From Coemansia sp. RSA 487 (taxonomy: Eukaryota; Kickxellomycota; Kickxellomycetes; Kickxellales; Kickxellaceae): 54,382 nucleotides of DNA. The notes below the pieces were generated by a model. That model saw only the letters and a program-made list of their open reading frames with translations, ran no database searches and was not told the origin of the DNA. The stretch's first letter is position 1, and each line of letters starts with the position of its first letter. A program made the position numbers and the translations under genes. The stretch covers positions 1 to 54,382 of the forward strand of contig JANBRJ010000104.1 in NCBI GenBank assembly GCA_027577595.1, given 5' to 3'. This document shows positions 25,670-33,270 of this stretch, one piece after another.

Positions 25670-26446
25670 TCACTCGTTGTGCTGCTTAAAATACCTTATC
25701 TGGACTCGCTGATCTTCATATTTTGCATGCCAATGGTTTGTTGGATTGTCTAAATTACAGAACATGCTTCTGTCGGTCGAGTTTATTATCTTGCCAAAAG
25801 AGATGTCTTCGCTGGAATGGAGCTCTTTCGTGATAGGGAACTGGGGACAGATTTGCTCCAGTATGACCCGTTTGAATATGTATATCTGACCGACTGGCCA
25901 GTAAAACCCGTAGTCTCGAGCAATTCCACCAGCGACTTGACAGTCCGTTCTAGACATTAGCCTTATAACCTCGTCAAGTTTGGATTCAGACATTACCAGG
26001 TCATCATCTATTTTGACATAAAAGTCTGTTTTCTCTGGTGCCTTGCACATATCCTCTAGCGCATCCAAGAGTTTGTCTGAAAGATTGCCCCACCTGTAAT
26101 TCCTTGGTAATTTGACATCGCAGCCGTCTATAGTTGTGCCATTGTCGCAGTAGCGAACCGCTCGCTTGTGCAAGGCAAATACGTCGTAAAGTGAACTGCT
26201 AAAGTCGCCGCGGAACATGAATACCGTTGATGTGATGCTTTCAGATGCTTCGCGAACTGGTTTCAACGAATAAAGCTCTTTTACCCTGGGTAGCAATGGA
26301 ATCTCGGGCTCCAATTCCGGGCTTGGCTCTTCCTTTGGTTTGTTGTAAGAGTTGCTTACAACATGATAGCTGACGCCAAGAGTTAGCAAGGTCACTAGTG
26401 TCGCAACTGCAATAAAGACGATTTTATAGCGCGCAAAAGTAAGCAT
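25670..26446 (-). CDS. GT31-like type II membrane protein, array copy 1
   Basis: First of six tandem paralogues, presumed Golgi beta-1,3-glycosyltransferases. The 258 residues comprise a short cytoplasmic start (MLTFARYK), a signal anchor (about 9-30), a Pro/Glu stem (36-52) and a compact lumenal domain. Asp147-Asp149 in FYVKIDDDLVM fits the metal-binding DxD of GT31. The block GQIYIFKR and Glu213-Asp214 in SSEDISFG fit the later GT31 motifs. Cysteines at 100, 109, 134, 169, 200 and 230 recur in its paralogues. The protein ends in QHNE. The start was chosen by alignment to the paralogues; a non-ATG extension upstream exists. The domain is shorter than in typical GT31 enzymes, so activity is uncertain. 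Confidence 0.65.
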   Translation of the reverse strand: MLTFARYKIVFIAVATLVTLLTLGVSYHVVSNSYNKPKEEPSPELEPEIPLLPRVKELYSLKPVREASESITSTVFMFRGDFSSSLYDVFALHKRAVRYCDNGTTIDGCDVKLPRNYRWGNLSDKLLDALEDMCKAPEKTDFYVKIDDDLVMSESKLDEVIRLMSRTDCQVAGGIARDYGFYWPVGQIYIFKRVILEQICPQFPITKELHSSEDISFGKIINSTDRSMFCNLDNPTNHWHAKYEDQRVQIRYFKQHNE

Positions 26447-27031
26447 GGCTGTAGTTTTATCCCCGCCTAAAGGCAATATTTAAGAATTATTAATATAGAT
26501 ATAAAGTAGCACATAACGAAACGCAAAAGATACCTTGAACGTACACGGAAAAAAGATTCCAAATGAGCTATAATTGTCCTGATTTTTTGTGAAACCCCAC
26601 CATTCCCAAAAGGTTTTTTATAGGAAATTCTTAGAAAGCTAGAGAGGTGGATCTCTAATCTAAAAATAATTCGGTGTAGGTCTAATTTTAAAAGCGGAAA
26701 ACAATTTCCACAAAGGAATTACCCCAATCAGCTTGCTTGGCCTTGCTGCTTCACGAAATTAGCTTATTAGTGCCGAAAAATCAAAATCATTATTGTAGCC
26801 AATGAGCATGTTCCAATGGACACCTACGCTCGGAAATATCGGCTTTGCTTTTCGAGTATAGCGGGATATATACGCCCTGGAGACAGTTTCTAAAATATTA
26901 TATTAGCTTTACATAGCATTGTTGGAAAAACATATTAGGAAAAGATAAAGAAGCCTTCCATTTATTTACAAACCCGTAGGTTTCTAAATAAACCTTTGCA
27001 GAACTATATGAGCAAGAGTATTTTTTTACCA
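26447..27031. other. spacer between array copies 1 and 2
   Basis: AT-rich, no gene seen. The element TATTAATAT lies at 26488-26496, also found upstream of copies 3 and 5. Confidence 0.45.
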
Positions 27032-27787
27032 TCATTCATTGTGCTGCTTAAAATATTTGATCTGGAGCCGTCGATCTGTGTAGCCTCTGTGCCAGTGGTT
27101 CTGTGGCCGATTCAGGTTGCAAAACATGCTTCTGTCGGTCGAGTTTATAAAACTACCAAACGAGATGTCTTCGCTGCTATGGAACATTTTTGCGATAGGA
27201 AGTTGCGCGCATATTTTTTCCAGTATTTGTCGCTTAAAGATGTATACCTGCCCAAGTGGCCAGTAAAACCCGTAGTCGCGAGCAATGCCACCAGCTACTT
27301 GGCAGTCTGTTGTAGACATCACTTTCATAACCTCGTCGAGCTTCGACTCTGACATGACTAGATCATCGTCAATCTTGACGTAAAAGTCTGTTTTTTCGGG
27401 TGCCTTGCACATAACTTCTAGTGCATCTGCGAGCTTTTCAGAAAGGTTTCCCCATTTGTAATTCCTCGGCAGCTTGATATTGCAGCCATCAATAGTAGTA
27501 TCTTTATCGCAGTAGCGAGTTGCTCGCTTTTGCAAGGAGAATAGATCATAAAACTTGCTGCTAAAGTCACCGCGAAACATGAATATAGTCGATGTAATGG
27601 TTTCGGGTGCCTTGCGAACTGGTCTCAGCGAATATAACTCGTTTACGTGAGGTAAAAGCGGTTTATCGTATTTGTGTCTCTCCTTATATCTGCTCACAAA
27701 ATACTTGCTTGTGCCAAGAGTTAGTAGAGTCACTACCATTGCGACTACAATAAAGAAGCATGCTCTTCGGCGTATTGGAAAAATCAT
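27032..27787 (-). CDS. GT31-like type II membrane protein, array copy 2
   Basis: The 251-residue paralogue of copy 1 has a signal anchor near residues 8-28 (FFIVVAMVVTLLTLG) and a short basic stem (RYKERHKYDK) in place of the Pro/Gln stem of other copies. The lumenal domain keeps YVKIDDDLVM, the GQVYIFKRQIL block, SSEDISFG and the C-terminal FKQHNE. It reads from a true ATG. All the recurring cysteines are present. Substrate unknown; the role in glycan building is inferred from the DxD and Glu-Asp arrangement. Confidence 0.65.
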   Translation of the reverse strand: MIFPIRRRACFFIVVAMVVTLLTLGTSKYFVSRYKERHKYDKPLLPHVNELYSLRPVRKAPETITSTIFMFRGDFSSKFYDLFSLQKRATRYCDKDTTIDGCNIKLPRNYKWGNLSEKLADALEVMCKAPEKTDFYVKIDDDLVMSESKLDEVMKVMSTTDCQVAGGIARDYGFYWPLGQVYIFKRQILEKICAQLPIAKMFHSSEDISFGSFINSTDRSMFCNLNRPQNHWHRGYTDRRLQIKYFKQHNE

Positions 27788-28186
27788 GATCGCTGGGCTT
27801 GGGTTTCTTCAAAGACACGTTTTACAGATAATAAGACAAAATTGGAAAGTTGGAAATAAGAAATTGTTTGCAGATAGAAAAGACTGAAAGGAAACTTTGT
27901 ATTTTCGCACTTGTCTTGGCATTTTCTGCCAATGTCGTTTAAAGGGTTAAACTAAAGGGTGAGGGGCAGACGTGCCTATCGCATTTCTGGATATGTTTGG
28001 TGCATAAAAAGATTGCTCCAAATAAAGAAAATGCGGAGGTGGATTGCACAAATCGATGCAAAGCCGATAAGCAACAAAAAAGACAAACACCACTCCAGTG
28101 CTAATTGTAAGTTCAAGCCGTTCCGTTGTTCTTGTGTACAATAAACTTTAGGAAAATGGAATAGCAAGGATAGAGTATATTAATAT

Positions 28187-28942
28187 TTACTCGTTATGCT
28201 GAATAAGATATTCAATCTTGATTCTTTTGTCACTGTAATCCTTGTGCCAGTGGTTTCTTGGAGTGTCTAGATCACAGAACATGCTTCTGTCGGTCGAGTT
28301 TATAAAACTGCCAAACGAAATGTCCTCACTTCCATGGAGCTGTCGTGTAATAGGAAGCTTTGCGCATATTGTCTCCAGTATTGCCCTTTTGAAAATGTAT
28401 ATTTGTCCGACAGCCCAGTAAAACTCGAAGTCGCGAGCTATTCTACCAGAGACCTGGCAATCCGTTGTAGACATTCTCTTTATAACTTCGTCAAGCTTGG
28501 ATTCGGACATTATCAGGTCATCGTCAATTTTGACGTAAAAGTCGGTTTTTTTGGGTGCCTTGCACATAACCTCTAACGCATCCAAAAGTTTGGACGAAAG
28601 AGTGCCCCATTTGTAGTTCCTCGGCAGTTTGACATCGCAGCCGCTTATAGTTGTGTCGTTGTCACAGTAACGAACTGCTCGCTTTTGCAAGGAGAAAAGA
28701 TCGTAAAAATCGCTGCTAAAGTCGCCGCGGAACATGAATACCGTTGATGTGATGTTTTCAGATGCTTCGCGAACTGGTTTCAACGAATAAAGATCTTCTA
28801 CGTGAGGTAATAGTCGGGCTTCGTTTTTGCGTCTTTCCCTGTCTCTGTTCAAAAAGTGATAGCTTGAGCCGAGAGTCAACAAGGTGACTACAATCGCAGC
28901 TACGATAAAAATGAAGCCTCTTTTGCGTGCTAGGAAATACAT
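28187..28942 (-). CDS. GT31-like type II membrane protein, array copy 3
   Basis: The 251-residue paralogue has a very basic N-terminus (MYFLARKRG), a signal anchor, and a short charged stem (NRDRERRKNE). The DDD motif reads YVKIDDDLIM. The later motif appears as GSEDISFG, and the end as IQHNE. The run usually read GGIARDYGFYWP is altered to GRIARDFEFYWA, so a Gly and the Tyr-Gly pair conserved in the sister copies are changed. It may differ in acceptor or be weakening. Otherwise intact. Confidence 0.63.
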   Translation of the reverse strand: MYFLARKRGFIFIVAAIVVTLLTLGSSYHFLNRDRERRKNEARLLPHVEDLYSLKPVREASENITSTVFMFRGDFSSDFYDLFSLQKRAVRYCDNDTTISGCDVKLPRNYKWGTLSSKLLDALEVMCKAPKKTDFYVKIDDDLIMSESKLDEVIKRMSTTDCQVSGRIARDFEFYWAVGQIYIFKRAILETICAKLPITRQLHGSEDISFGSFINSTDRSMFCDLDTPRNHWHKDYSDKRIKIEYLIQHNE

Positions 28943-29367
28943 AATCTCTGGGTTTTGAGTTCTCTCGAGTAGGTAGGTTATCGCTATGGTGGCTATTAAT
29001 ATAAATATTCATAAAAACAAGAATTGCAAATAAGGAATCGTTTGCATAAACTTAAAAAATCAAAATATCTGTAGGTACAGCTTCACATTTGTTGTCATTT
29101 TGTAAAACTCACTCCAAAGAAGGAAGGGACCTGAAGGAAATCAGAAAGTTTTTTTAGATAAATAACGAAAAAGCGGAAAGGATTTTCAGTATGTAGATCT
29201 GATTTGCTTTATCCACAAAAAGTGCACAAATAGAGGTGAAATAAAACCAATTGGCTGTGCTATGAAGCATTTGTACTGGAATTTTGGCTAATCAAAAGAG
29301 AAGAACCAAAGATATTTACTGTAAAATAACGAAATTAGAAAAGGCTGGCAATGTGCATACTTGCAAT
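28943..29367. other. spacer between array copies 3 and 4
   Basis: AT-rich with TATTAATAT at 28994-29002. No gene seen. Confidence 0.45.
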
Positions 29368-30270
29368 TTATCTCCTCTCATTGTGTTGAGTAAAGTATGT
29401 GATCTGAACTCGCTGATCTTCGTACTTTGCGTGCCAATGGTTTGTTGGACTGTCCAGATTGCAGAACATGCTTCTGTCGGTGGTGTTTAAAAGGCTGCCA
29501 AATGTAATATCCTCGCTGGGATGAAACACATTTGTAACTGGAAGCTGTGGGCAGATCTTCTCCAGAATTGCTCGTTTGAAAATGTATATCTGTCCGACTG
29601 GCCAGTAAAACCCGTAGTCTCGTGCGATGCCACCAGTGATTTGGCAATCTGTTGTGGCCATCACTTTTATAACCTCGTCGAGTTTGGACTCGGACATCAC
29701 CAGGTCATCATCTATCTTTACATAAAAGTCGGTTCGCTTGGGTGTCTTGCACATGTGCTCCAGTACATCCAAGAGTTTGTCTGAAAGAGTGCCCCATCTG
29801 TAGTTCCTCGATAATTTGACATTGCAGCCGCTAATCTTAGTATCTTTATCGCAGTAGCGAGTAGCCCGCTTGTGCAAGGAAAAAAGGTCGTAAAGTGAAC
29901 TGCTAAAGTCGCCGCGGAGCATGAATACCGTTGATGTGATGTTTTCAGATGCCTCACGCACCGGTTTCAATGAGTAAAGTTCATTTACTTTGGGTAGCAG
30001 TGGCTTTTGCTTTTGTTCCTGTATAAACTGCTGGCGCTGTTCTTCTGTTAGCTTCTGTTCCGTGTTCCCTGACGGTTGTTCTGCCTGTGGCTCTGTCGGT
30101 TGAGGTGATTGCTGTTGTTGCGGTTGATGTGTTTGTTGTGGCTGCTGCGGTTGCCCAATCTGGATTGCGCTGGATACATCCAAAATATGGTAGCTAGCTA
30201 AAACAGTCAGAAGAACCATCAGAGCCGCAACCGAGACAAATATGATCTTATACGTGGTAAAGGCAAACAT
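29368..30270 (-). CDS. GT31-like type II membrane protein, array copy 4
   Basis: The 300-residue paralogue starts at MFAFTTYK by alignment to its sisters; an upstream extension begins at a non-ATG codon. After the signal anchor comes a long Pro/Gln-rich stem (QPQQPQQTHQPQQQQ), then the shared stem block QKLTEEQRQQF and the lumenal domain with YVKIDDDLVM and PSEDITFG. It alone ends HNERR, with two extra arginines after the usual HNE. Most of its lumenal coding sequence is almost identical to copy 6, while both ends differ (see the conversion tract). Confidence 0.65.
   Translation of the reverse strand: MFAFTTYKIIFVSVAALMVLLTVLASYHILDVSSAIQIGQPQQPQQTHQPQQQQSPQPTEPQAEQPSGNTEQKLTEEQRQQFIQEQKQKPLLPKVNELYSLKPVREASENITSTVFMLRGDFSSSLYDLFSLHKRATRYCDKDTKISGCNVKLSRNYRWGTLSDKLLDVLEHMCKTPKRTDFYVKIDDDLVMSESKLDEVIKVMATTDCQITGGIARDYGFYWPVGQIYIFKRAILEKICPQLPVTNVFHPSEDITFGSLLNTTDRSMFCNLDSPTNHWHAKYEDQRVQITYFTQHNERR
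29438..30060. repeat. gene-conversion-like tract, copy 4 side
   Basis: A 623-bp block matching 32462-33084 at a constant offset of 3024 bp with no gaps and about nine mismatches by eye (about 98.5%). Immediately outside both ends the two genes diverge sharply. It covers the stem block and nearly all of the lumenal domain. Confidence 0.8.
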
Positions 30271-31157
30271 TGTCACTGCCGGTTTTATATATAGACAAAT
30301 AGCTCTAAATGAAATGGTAAACTGTATCAAAATAAACACAGAGAAAAGCAAAACACGTCAAATGAGGCAAAAAGGAACTGCCTGAAAGGAATTCAAAGCT
30401 CTGACATAAATGCTTGTGTTCCTTTATGCCAAAAAGTTTCAAAAGCAAACTTTTCAGATTAGCACAAAACATTTTGCCTGATGATTGAAAATCCTTTCTG
30501 GAAAGCTGGTGCCAAATGTGGAAAGTGCTGCGAAAATATGCACAATATTTTTAGTGCGGAGGTGACACTTACAGAGCATGACATGATGACAAATTTATCC
30601 AAACTCTTTAATTCTTCTCTTTTCCAGCCCACCGCATAGTGTGTGGCATTAGCATTACCAGCAGGGGCGAGGGATGGTCCCCCTACCAACACAAGCACTA
30701 TGTGCTGCGTTTAAAGAAGGCCTCCCTTTCCAAGAACAGATTACCTTCCTCAGGGAGAGCAAGAAAACATACTTAGCATTCCTACTCGATATTATTTGAA
30801 GGGGGCGAGTTATCTGATGTCGTGCTGAAAACAGTGCCAAATTGAATCCACGAGTTTTGGCTGATATTATCCAATGATTCTTTTTTAGATAGATAAAAGA
30901 TAAATAGCAGCTGAGACTAATGTGCTAGCTGTTGGCTATAGCTATCTAAACATGCCAATAAGAACGTCAATTATGTAATATACACTAAAAATGCAGCATA
31001 ATTACATGTTCACAATCTCCGAAATCATTTTCTTGGTAACAATTTGTATAATTCTCACTAGTTTCTTGCTGCTAAAGCATAGTCAAATTTAACTATTGGT
31101 CAATTAGAAACAAAAGAGAAAACCAACTACCAACAGGAAACAACATTCCTATTGTCT
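30271..31157. other. spacer between array copies 4 and 5
   Basis: The longest gap in the array (887 bp). A GC-richer island near 30620-30830 has short open frames on both strands but nothing I recognise. It may be a relic of an older gene. Confidence 0.35.
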
Positions 31158-32036
31158 TCACTCGTTGTGCTGAGTAAAGTATTTGATTTTAACTCTATGG
31201 TCCTCGTAGTTTATGTGCCAGTGGTTCGCTGGCGTGTTCAGATTACAAAACCTGCTTGTATCTTTGGAGTTTAGTATCATGCCAAACGAAATGTCTTCGC
31301 TAGAATGAAGCTTCATTGTGATAGGGAACTTTTGGCAGAATTGCTCCAGTATTTCTCGTTTAAAGATGTATACTTGTCCAAGTGGCCAGTAGAAACCCTG
31401 GCTGGACATAATACCGCCTGCAACTTGACAGTCCGTCGTAGACATTACCCTTATAACTTCGTCAAGCTTCGAGTCGGACATTATCAAGTCATCGTCAGCC
31501 TTTACATAAAAATCGGTTTTCTCGGGTGCCTTGCACATGTGTTCCAGTGCATCTACAAGCTTGTCTGAAAGATTGCCCCATCTGTAGTTCCTTGGCAATT
31601 TAACATCGCAGCCGTCAATAGTAGTATCTTTATCGCAGTAGCGAGTGGCCCGTTTGTGTAGGGCAAATATGTCGTAAAATGGACTACTAAAGTCGCCACG
31701 GAACATGAATACGGTCGTTGTGATGTTGTTTGGAGCCTCGCGGACAGGCGCTAACGAGTACAACTCATTCAATCTTTGCGGTGACTGTTTTTCATTCTGC
31801 TGTTGTTGCGGCGGTGGTTGTTCTTGTGTTTGTTCCGATTGTTGCGGTTGCGGTTGCGGTTGCGGTTGGGGTTGGGGTGGGGGTTGCGGTTGTGGTTGTG
31901 GTTGCGGTTGCGGTTGCTGCTCGTTTGCCTCCACTTTAGAAGCGTCCAAAAGCTTATAGGTAGCGCCAAGAGTAAGAATAATCACGAGTGCTACAGCCAA
32001 GCTAATTGTTGCTTTATACCGTACAAGAGCAAACAT
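31158..32036 (-). CDS. GT31-like type II membrane protein, array copy 5
   Basis: The 292-residue paralogue starts at MFALVRYK. Its stem is an extreme Gln/Pro repeat (PQPQPQPQ type, residues about 38-78) encoded by a GGTTGC hexanucleotide repeat. The lumenal domain carries YVKADDDLIM, where Ala replaces the Ile seen in the other five copies just before DDD. GGIMSSQGFYWP replaces GGIARDYGFYWP, and SSEDISFG is kept. The end is FTQHNE. It is intact but the most diverged around the predicted active site. Confidence 0.65.
   Translation of the reverse strand: MFALVRYKATISLAVALVIILTLGATYKLLDASKVEANEQQPQPQPQPQPQPPPQPQPQPQPQPQQSEQTQEQPPPQQQQNEKQSPQRLNELYSLAPVREAPNNITTTVFMFRGDFSSPFYDIFALHKRATRYCDKDTTIDGCDVKLPRNYRWGNLSDKLVDALEHMCKAPEKTDFYVKADDDLIMSDSKLDEVIRVMSTTDCQVAGGIMSSQGFYWPLGQVYIFKREILEQFCQKFPITMKLHSSEDISFGMILNSKDTSRFCNLNTPANHWHINYEDHRVKIKYFTQHNE
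31842..31917. repeat. (GGTTGC)n hexanucleotide minisatellite
   Basis: Degenerate GGTTGC/GGTTGG repeats encoding the Gln-Pro stem of array copy 5 on the minus strand. The unit is two codons, so expansion keeps frame and lengthens the stem. Confidence 0.85.
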
Positions 32037-32397
32037 CGTTACTAAATTCAATAATCGCTTAAACGGTCTATTAATATGTATAAATGGCTATACGGTTTGG
32101 TGCTAGTGTAGAGGAAAATAAAGAATGTTGAGACGGATGAAGAGGGAGAGGAACTCGAAAGCAACTCTGCTGGGGAAGTGTTCATTATATTTCTCTTTTT
32201 ACAAAAAAAAACTTCAAATGCAAACATCCAAAACGAACTCATTATATAGACTGACGATTTAAAATACCACAAAGAAATCAATATCTGATAACAATATCTA
32301 AGTATGGCAAAAAGAGTGATCTTCGAGAACAAGAAATTGATTGATTTTGATATAATTAAAATCACATGAAATGTACGTACACGCTATCTACTAATAT
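32037..32397. other. spacer between array copies 5 and 6
   Basis: AT-rich, with TATTAATAT at 32069-32077 just upstream of the copy 5 start. No gene seen. Confidence 0.45.
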
Positions 32398-33270
32398 TCA
32401 TTCGTTGTGCTGAGTAAAGTATTTGATTTTGACTCTATGGTCATTGTAGTTTTTGTGCCAGTGGTTTGTTGGATTGTCCAGATTGCAGAACATGCTTCTG
32501 TCGGTGGTGTTTAAAAGGCTGCCAAATGTAATATCCTCGCTGGGATGAAACACATTTGTAACTGGAAGCTGTGGGCAGATCTTCTCCAGAATTGCTCGTT
32601 TGAAAATGTATATCTGTCCGACTGGCCAGTAAAACCCGTAGTCTCGTGCGATGCCACCAGTGATTTGGCAATCTGTTGTGGCCATCACTTTTATAACCTC
32701 GTCGAGTTTGGATTCGGACATCACCAGGTCATCATCTATCTTTACATAAAAGTCGGTTCGCTTGGGTGTCTTGCACATGTGCTCCAGTACATCCAAGAGT
32801 TTGTCTGAAAGAGTGCCCCATCTGTAGCTCCTCAATAATTTGACATTGCAGCCGCTAATCTTAGTATCTTTATCGCAGTAGCGAGTAGCCCGCTTGTGCA
32901 AGGAAAAAAGGTCGTAAAATGGACTGCTAAAGTCGCCGCGGAACATGAATACCGTTGATGTGATGTTTTCAGATGCCTCACGCACCGGTTTCAATGAGTA
33001 AAGTTCATTTACTCTGGGTAGCAGTGGCTTTTGCTTTTGTTCCTGTATAAACTGCTGGCGCTGTTCCTCTGTTAGCTTCTGTTCTGAGTGCACTGCATGC
33101 TCTAGTGGCTGGGGTTCCTCTGTTGATTGCAGTTGTTGTGACTCTTTCGGCCACTCGATTGCATTAATGTTAGATTTGTCCATAACATAGTAACTGGCAC
33201 CAAGAGTCAAGAAAATAGCCAATGTTGTAACCGAGATAAGAACTATTATATATCGCGAAAAAGCAAACAT
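32398..33270 (-). CDS. GT31-like type II membrane protein, array copy 6
   Basis: The 290-residue paralogue starts at MFAFSRYI, preceded in frame only by a non-ATG codon. It has a signal anchor and a Gln/Glu-rich stem (QLQSTEEPQPLEH) unlike that of copy 4. From QKLTEEQRQQF to NLDNPTNHWH it is nearly identical to copy 4. Its last 20 residues (NYNDHRVKIKYFTQHNE) instead resemble copy 5, so the gene is a mosaic. YVKIDDDLVM and PSEDITFG are present. Upstream begins an 870-bp gene-free stretch. Confidence 0.65.
   Translation of the reverse strand: MFAFSRYIIVLISVTTLAIFLTLGASYYVMDKSNINAIEWPKESQQLQSTEEPQPLEHAVHSEQKLTEEQRQQFIQEQKQKPLLPRVNELYSLKPVREASENITSTVFMFRGDFSSPFYDLFSLHKRATRYCDKDTKISGCNVKLLRSYRWGTLSDKLLDVLEHMCKTPKRTDFYVKIDDDLVMSESKLDEVIKVMATTDCQITGGIARDYGFYWPVGQIYIFKRAILEKICPQLPVTNVFHPSEDITFGSLLNTTDRSMFCNLDNPTNHWHKNYNDHRVKIKYFTQHNE
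32462..33084. repeat. gene-conversion-like tract, copy 6 side
   Basis: Partner of the block at 29438-30060, same orientation and without gaps. Confidence 0.8.

What the first reader, a model, noticed from the sequence alone, without database searches (positions are those of the whole stretch)
25670..33270. Six-gene tandem array of GT31-like type II membrane proteins with an invariant HNE C-terminus
All six share a signal anchor, a variable stem, a DDD motif, a Glu-Asp motif (SEDI(S/T)FG), recurring cysteines and an end in -QHNE (copy 4 adds RR). The stems vary widely, from none to long Gln/Pro repeats, while the lumenal core is conserved. This is the pattern of an actively diversifying surface-glycan family. 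I do not know it as a described family. The carboxyl end is too constant to be incidental and could be a retention or structural element. This is my best candidate for an undescribed system.
Basis: partly seen in the sequence, partly recalled or inferred. Interest (0 to 1): 0.75.

Follow-up and report, generated by a model that had tools for sequence, protein, structure and literature searches.

The report
Coemansia tandem array of Golgi glycosyltransferases
Six neighbouring genes in a Coemansia-like fungus encode membrane-anchored enzymes that very probably attach sugars to secreted or cell-wall molecules; they look like a previously unnamed branch of a well-known enzyme family, so the finding is real but fairly ordinary.

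Summary
In detail: six uninterrupted ORFs on the minus strand, 25670-33270, 68-72% identical to copy 1, each with an N-terminal signal anchor, variable stem, DDD, SEDI(S/T)FG, six shared cysteines and -QHNE (copy 4 -QHNERR). The glycosyltransferase call holds. Pfam Galactosyl_T matches 36 of 38 aligned members. The AlphaFold model (pLDDT 87.6) is closest to GT31 enzymes (CHSY3-CHPF, B3GalT6, B3GalT5, C1GalT1, B3GNT2). DDD lines up with the metal-binding DDD of B3GNT2 in two steps, through a sister Kickxellales family. Most likely these are inverting, metal-dependent GT31-type Golgi transferases; donor and acceptor are unknown. The core is under purifying selection (dN/dS 0.06-0.17 in 20 of 21 pairs) and partly homogenised by gene conversion (copies 4 and 6 share 623 bases with 9 mismatches), so only the stems diversify. 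And the HNE end is not invariant: 7 of 38 database proteins with a C-terminus lack it. It usually ends 20 residues after a conserved Trp, as does the sister family (ending -NH), so it looks like the end of the catalytic domain rather than a retention signal. New member of a known kind.

The parts
25670..26446 (-). copy 1, 258 aa GT31-like protein
   Evidence: Galactosyl_T 19.0 bits, below the 23-bit cut-off; modelled
27032..27787 (-). copy 2, 251 aa, short stem
   Evidence: Galactosyl_T 25.1 bits
28187..28942 (-). copy 3, 251 aa, short stem
   Evidence: Galactosyl_T 25.6 bits
29368..30270 (-). copy 4, 300 aa, Gln/Pro stem, ends QHNERR
   Evidence: Galactosyl_T 24.0 bits
31158..32036 (-). copy 5, 292 aa, long Pro-Gln repeat stem
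   Evidence: Galactosyl_T 19.2 bits, below cut-off
32398..33270 (-). copy 6, 290 aa
   Evidence: Galactosyl_T 22.9 bits, just below cut-off
26000..26008 (-). DDD (residues 147-149) of copy 1, predicted metal/nucleotide-sugar site
   Evidence: invariant in 38 of 38 aligned members; aligned to DDD of the sister family, which aligns to DDD of B3GNT2
25805..25810 (-). Glu-Asp (213-214) of copy 1, predicted xED motif with catalytic base
   Evidence: invariant in 38 of 38
25727..25735 (-). His-Trp-His (238-240) of copy 1, candidate C-His metal ligand
   Evidence: W239 and H240 invariant in 38 of 38, H238 in at least 90%
25673..25684 (-). QHNE end of copy 1
29438..30060 (-). putative gene-conversion tract in copy 4 (partner in copy 6)
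   Evidence: 623 columns, 9 mismatches; 50-column steps outside it are 14-56% identical on the 5' side of the gene and 76, 70, then 30-42% on the 3' side
32462..33084 (-). putative gene-conversion tract in copy 6 (partner in copy 4)

Best explanation
The array encodes six paralogous, catalytically competent, type II Golgi glycosyltransferases of GT31 type. A short cytosolic N-terminus and signal anchor hold each enzyme in the membrane; a flexible stem spaces it; the lumenal GT-A domain binds a UDP-sugar and a divalent metal through DDD (147-149 in copy 1) and a C-terminal His (H238 or H240), and Asp214 of the Glu-Asp motif acts as base in an inverting transfer, probably of Gal or GlcNAc in beta linkage onto secreted glycoproteins, cell-wall glycan or glycolipid. 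The last 20 residues from the conserved Trp, ending in QHNE, belong to the hypervariable C-terminal segment (HV3) of the GT-A domain and may close the acceptor side. The array arose by tandem duplication, some of it probably before the sampled Coemansia species split, and ectopic gene conversion keeps some cores alike while stems drift. Shown by computation: the ORFs, homology, predicted fold, conserved catalytic residues, selection on the core, the near-identical tract. Inferred: Golgi location, activity, donor, acceptor, role of the tail, conversion as the cause of the tract.
Against: No PDB sequence match for the array family itself: copy 1 none up to E 10, the 6- and 38-sequence profiles one unrelated chance row each. 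The whole-genome scan with the Pfam model reported one locus on another contig and not the array. Three of six copies fall below the Pfam cut-off. The GT31 motifs I-V as quoted in PMC11538602 are met by 0, 0, 2, 1 and 0 of 38; only relaxed cores are met. Fold scores are moderate: TM to query 0.45-0.53 in Foldseek's first seven rows, and 11 of its 19 rows at E <= 0.001 are LH3 or alpha-1,3-galactosyl/ABO-type enzymes, not GT31. The tail is predicted at pLDDT about 68 in copy 1 and 41 in the sister, so its role is not resolved. No coordinates were available to measure the DDD-to-pocket distance.
Confidence: 0.78

Rival explanations
1. GT-A glycosyltransferases that are not of GT31 descent (for example nearer to GT2, GT25 or GT64) and merely share the fold and DxD.
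Against: GT31 enzymes fill rows 1-17 for the array model and rows 1-18, with a gap of 2.5 Z, for the sister model; Galactosyl_T is the only Pfam family matched by more than one of the 38 members.
Confidence: 0.12
2. Non-catalytic GT31 relatives acting as chaperones or scaffolds, as COSMC does for C1GalT1.
For: A GT31 paralogue has lost activity before: COSMC lost DxD and xED (PMC7185993, passage). The genomic relative on contig C93 has DED and no tail.
Against: DDD, ED and H240 are invariant in 38 of 38 aligned members; purifying selection on the core. DED still fits DxD.
Confidence: 0.07
3. The QHNE end is a C-terminal sorting or retention signal, comparable to HDEL.
For: QHNE codons differ only synonymously among seven copies, so the amino acids are selected.
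Against: It lacks the final Leu of HDEL (recalled), is followed by RR in copy 4, the C97 copy and P0008, is absent in 7 of 38 database proteins, and its distance from the Trp is shared with the sister family that ends in -NH.
Confidence: 0.08

Closest known systems
Human beta-1,3-galactosyltransferases B3GalT5/B3GalT6 and B3GNT2 (GT31)
   Same: GT-A fold, DDD/DxD, xED; best single-domain fold matches together with C1GalT1; a type II anchor (recalled for the human enzymes)
   Different: 10-15% identity in the structural alignments, no GT31 motif I; donor and acceptor unknown
Sister Kickxellales family (tandem pair on contig C12, L011; 73 database relatives in Coemansia, Linderina, Kickxella, Martensiomyces, Dipsacomyces)
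   Same: Same architecture, DDD, ED, WHKxY; 20 residues from Trp to the end in 55 of 65 with a C-terminus; profile match
   Different: 19% identity; mostly ends -NH instead of -QHNE; different cysteine pattern; no described function found
Fungal GT31 enzymes Pvg3 (S. pombe), Ggt1-3 (Cryptococcus neoformans), GfsA (Aspergillus fumigatus)
   Different: GfsA has an extra beta-sandwich domain and Gly for the first acidic residue of xED (PMC11538602, passages); Pvg3 and Ggt sequences were not compared here

Membership tests
GT31 (CAZy) / Pfam PF01762 Galactosyl_T | Sequence match to the family model | tested here: inconclusive
   3 of 6 copies over the 23-bit cut-off, 3 below; C97 copy 24.4 and C93 copy 29.6 bits; 36 of 38 aligned members at E <= 0.01; whole-genome scan missed the array
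GT31 (CAZy) / Pfam PF01762 Galactosyl_T | GT-A fold nearest to GT31 structures | tested here: met
   predicted models only; sister model
GT31 (CAZy) / Pfam PF01762 Galactosyl_T | DxD metal motif at the donor site | tested here: met
   FxxKxD(D/E)D in 38 of 38, aligned to B3GNT2 DDD in two steps; pocket geometry not measured
GT31 (CAZy) / Pfam PF01762 Galactosyl_T | xED with catalytic base, followed by Gly | tested here: met
   E213, D214 and G218 invariant in 38 of 38; the strict motif V with Val and Trp/Cys in 0 of 38
GT31 (CAZy) / Pfam PF01762 Galactosyl_T | C-terminal His for the metal | tested here: inconclusive
   H240 invariant, H238 nearly; which one coordinates cannot be told
GT31, canonical motif set I-V (as quoted in PMC11538602) | Motif I [RAL][RA]xx[IVA]xx[TS]W | tested here: not met
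   0 of 38; the paper says it is not conserved in GfsAs either, which are GT31, so it excludes the canonical subgroup, not GT31
GT31 | Inverting transfer from a UDP-sugar | not testable with these tools
   needs an enzyme assay
HDEL-type retention signal | C-terminal (H/K)DEL (recalled) | tested here: not met
   ends are QHNE, QHNERR, QHND and others
Pvg3/Ggt clades of fungal GT31 | Grouping with Pvg3 or Ggt1-3 in a tree | not tested
   those sequences were not fetched

The most novel reading that the evidence does not exclude
The carboxyl end of nearly fixed length (20 residues from the Trp of HWH, in both the array family and its sister family) is a new catalytic or acceptor-binding element of a fungal GT31 lineage: the chain terminus itself folds into the acceptor site, and the array, by exchanging cores against tails through gene conversion (the same core in copies 4 and 6, but with different tails), shuffles acceptor specificities.
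Probability: 0.17. Interest if true: 0.55.

Novelty: new member of a known kind. Interest (0 to 1): 0.36.

Why it matters
The cell-surface glycans of Kickxellales and their enzymes seem little studied: in the open-licence library no paper holds both Coemansia and glycosyltransferase. A lineage-expanded GT31-like family, with at least eight copies in this genome and a sister pair, gives defined genes with which to test what sugars decorate these fungi. The near-constant C-terminus gives a simple, testable idea on how a GT-A enzyme may build its acceptor side. If only the enzymology is confirmed, this is a useful but ordinary family annotation.

Tried and rejected
NCBIfam: no family for copies 1-3; the rows for copies 4-6 are low-complexity stem or weak matches, none a glycosyltransferase over its cut-off. 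Direct sequence searches of the PDB with copy 1, the six-copy profile, the 38-sequence profile and the C93 copy gave none or one chance row each (integrin, DENN domain). BFVD gave assorted viral GT-A proteins, not informative for origin. Rejected: 'actively diversifying core'; HDEL-like retention; a fold unrelated to glycosyltransferases. Limits of the dN/dS values: core dS is above 1 in 16 of 21 pairs; anchor plus stem gives 0.16-0.58 in 17 of 21 pairs and is saturated in 4; the 0.40 of copies 4 and 6 rests on few changes. Literature: Coemansia + glycosyltransferase 0 papers; GT31 + fungi + galactosyltransferase 35, listing; Coemansia + genome + gene family 14, listing; Kickxellales + cell wall + polysaccharide 6, listing; GT31 + Mucoromycota 1, passages read; Pvg3 2, listing; GT-A motifs 4, passages of two read. 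The first search of homologues scored only the 7988 candidates sharing most words, so the relatives are a lower bound. On checking, two supports for the novel case proved weaker than I first wrote, and I lowered its probability from 0.20 to 0.17: the profile alignment pairs the His of QHNE with the final His of -NH across a two-residue gap, so that the shared Asn in place 19 rests on counting from the Trp only; and the likeness of copy 4's tail to copy 1's is in protein, not clearly in DNA (77% in the last block, against 93% for copies 5 and 6).
Full report
What is there. The minus strand of 25670-33270 holds six uninterrupted ORFs of 251-300 codons. They are 68-72% identical to copy 1, and differ most in the stem. 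All six have DDD, SEDI(S/T)FG, six shared cysteines, and end in QHNE, copy 4 in QHNERR. Each has a hydrophobic stretch at about residues 8-27, a short N-side with one to three basic residues, and no other stretch nearly as hydrophobic: a type II signal anchor. Spacers are 361-887 bases with G+C 0.32-0.38.

Elsewhere in the genome. The assembly has 17.8 Mb in 184 contigs. Copy 1 finds the six array genes, one copy on C97, one on C93, and a weak hit on C12. The C97 copy (298 aa, ending QHNERR) is at L009:3796-4692. The C93 copy keeps DxD as DED and stops one residue after the Tyr, without the QHN tail. C12 carries a tandem pair of more distant relatives, and C132 a third kind that passes the Galactosyl_T cut-off. 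A search with P0028, a C93-like protein, finds the same eight copies plus C132. The tool calls such counts lower bounds.

Who else has it. A profile of the six copies finds 40 database proteins; 35 of 40 are named Coemansia. The others are the window's own protein, one from Umbelopsis isabellina, two unnamed ones that group with it, and one from a 6-kb contig of Trichomonascus vanleenenianus. A second search led by the Umbelopsis protein gave 36 hits, one of them new. Given names are 'hypothetical protein', 'Uncharacterized protein' or 'Hexosyltransferase'. P0005 (RSA 1813) is identical to the C97 copy over the core, and the halves of P0001 (RSA 1646) and P0002 (RSA 1843) are identical to copies 4, 3 and 2 over the core; P0010 (RSA 1813) matches copy 5 by eye. 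So the window comes from these or a close relative. In the tree (46 rows) array copies 1-6 and C97 fall in a clade of 21 rows with support 100/99. Copy 2 groups with genes of Coemansia sp. Benny D160-2 and RSA 1804 (81/88), copy 3 with C. erecta, RSA 1933 and RSA 2399 (90/83), while copies 1, 4, 5, 6 and C97 form one cluster (96/86); C93 lies in another, tail-less clade. Some duplications are thus probably older than the species, some younger.

GT31 motifs. PMC11538602 quotes five motifs from earlier work. As written, they occur in 0, 0, 2, 1 and 0 of 38 array-family proteins. A relaxed FxxKxD(D/E)D and (E/D)DxxxG occur in 38 of 38, and G186 and Y189, the G and Y of motif IV, are invariant. 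Motif I is absent, as it is not conserved in GfsAs by the same paper. So the family works like GT31 and is most likely a divergent branch of it, but it is not a canonical member by these motifs.

The HNE end. Of 41 family proteins (P0003, the window's own, included), 38 have a readable C-terminus: 22 QHNE, 7 QHN with another residue, 2 QQN, 7 without (three of the Umbelopsis group; P0007 and P0026 of C. spiralis, P0028 of RSA 2049, P0031 of RSA 1200). In 30 of 38 the chain ends 20 residues from the Trp of HWH, counted inclusively, and in 2 at 22 because of RR; in the sister family 55 of 65 end at 20, and 55 of 65 have Asn-His at places 19-20. Counted from the Trp, Asn in place 19 is common to both; the profile alignment instead pairs His with His across a two-residue gap, so residue-by-residue homology of the tails is open. 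The four QHNE codons of seven copies differ only synonymously. In GT-A enzymes the C-terminal tail after the last core strand is a hypervariable region, HV3, conserved within families and tied to acceptor specificity (PMC7185993, passages), and in B3GNT2 it holds an acceptor residue and the C-His. I read QHNE as the end of HV3. Its fold is not well predicted, and its loss in some relatives shows that it is not indispensable.

Evolution of the array. Core dN/dS (Nei-Gojobori, my script) is 0.06-0.17 in 20 of 21 pairs among seven copies, with dS above 1 in 16 of 21; copies 4 and 6 give 0.40 on few changes. Copies 4 and 6 share 623 columns with 9 mismatches (29438-30060 and 32462-33084), while 50-column steps outside are 14-56% identical on the 5' side and 76, 70, then 30-42% on the 3' side. 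The tract covers the end of the stem and most of the core but stops before the tail. Copy 6's tail is like copy 5's in protein and DNA (93% in the last block); copy 4's is like copy 1's in protein, less clearly in DNA (77%). Ectopic gene conversion is the simplest reading, since a recent duplication would have kept the flanks alike. So cores are conserved and partly homogenised, while stems, with Gln/Pro repeats in copies 4 and 5, drift.

Surroundings. I scanned 16 other long ORFs with Pfam: 11 matched, among them a Zn2Cys6 factor, M16 peptidase, arginase, HMG box, trypsin, UTP6, SelO, RGS and SMC-type proteins and a PF02458 transferase; 5 had no match. None is a glycan enzyme, but genes with introns and unscanned ORFs may be missed. 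I see no sign of a glycan gene cluster.

How it works, and how sure. Shown by computation: homology, predicted fold, residues, selection, the near-identical tract. From established knowledge: a GT31 enzyme uses a UDP-sugar, a metal and an Asp base, usually in the Golgi. Inferred: that these copies are active and what they modify. Fungal GT31 enzymes with known or proposed roles act on surface glycans or glycolipids: Ggt2 in the galactomannan side chain of the Cryptococcus capsule, Ggt1 in GIPC, Pvg3 in S. pombe (PMC11150766, abstract and sections 3 and 20), GfsA in galactofuranose chains (PMC11538602, passages). PMC13161914 reports B3GALT6-like GT31 proteins in non-flagellated fungi other than Dikarya and Zoopagomycota (passages). 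I give 0.78 to the model as a whole. Novelty: an undescribed, lineage-expanded branch of a known enzyme kind.

Noticed in passing
window 29438-30060 and 32462-33084: Copies 4 and 6 share a near-identical 623-base tract flanked by diverged DNA: probably recent ectopic gene conversion inside the array.
   Followed up: yes
L010:4055-4903 (contig C93): Eighth, diverged copy with DED instead of DDD and a chain that ends before the QHN tail; it groups with tail-less proteins of other Coemansia.
   Followed up: partly
P0001, P0002, P0007 (database proteins): Public gene models that fuse two neighbouring copies into one protein; they look like annotation merges, and suggest such arrays in RSA 1646, RSA 1843 and C. 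spiralis.
   Followed up: partly
P0024 (Trichomonascus vanleenenianus, 6-kb contig): An ascomycete yeast entry with a protein 51% identical to copy 1 and ending in QHNE: horizontal transfer or a contaminating contig.
   Followed up: no
L009:19-750 and L010:1247-3964: Both dispersed copies lie near ORFs that look, by eye, like ubiquitin-specific proteases; probably coincidence.
   Followed up: no
L011 (contig C12) 264-1040 and 2324-3130: A tandem pair of a sister GT31-like family found in several Kickxellales genera, with Asn-His at the end in 55 of 65 relatives.
   Followed up: yes
L012:1336-2097 (contig C132): A third kind of Galactosyl_T protein in this genome (25.4 bits) with DED.
   Followed up: no
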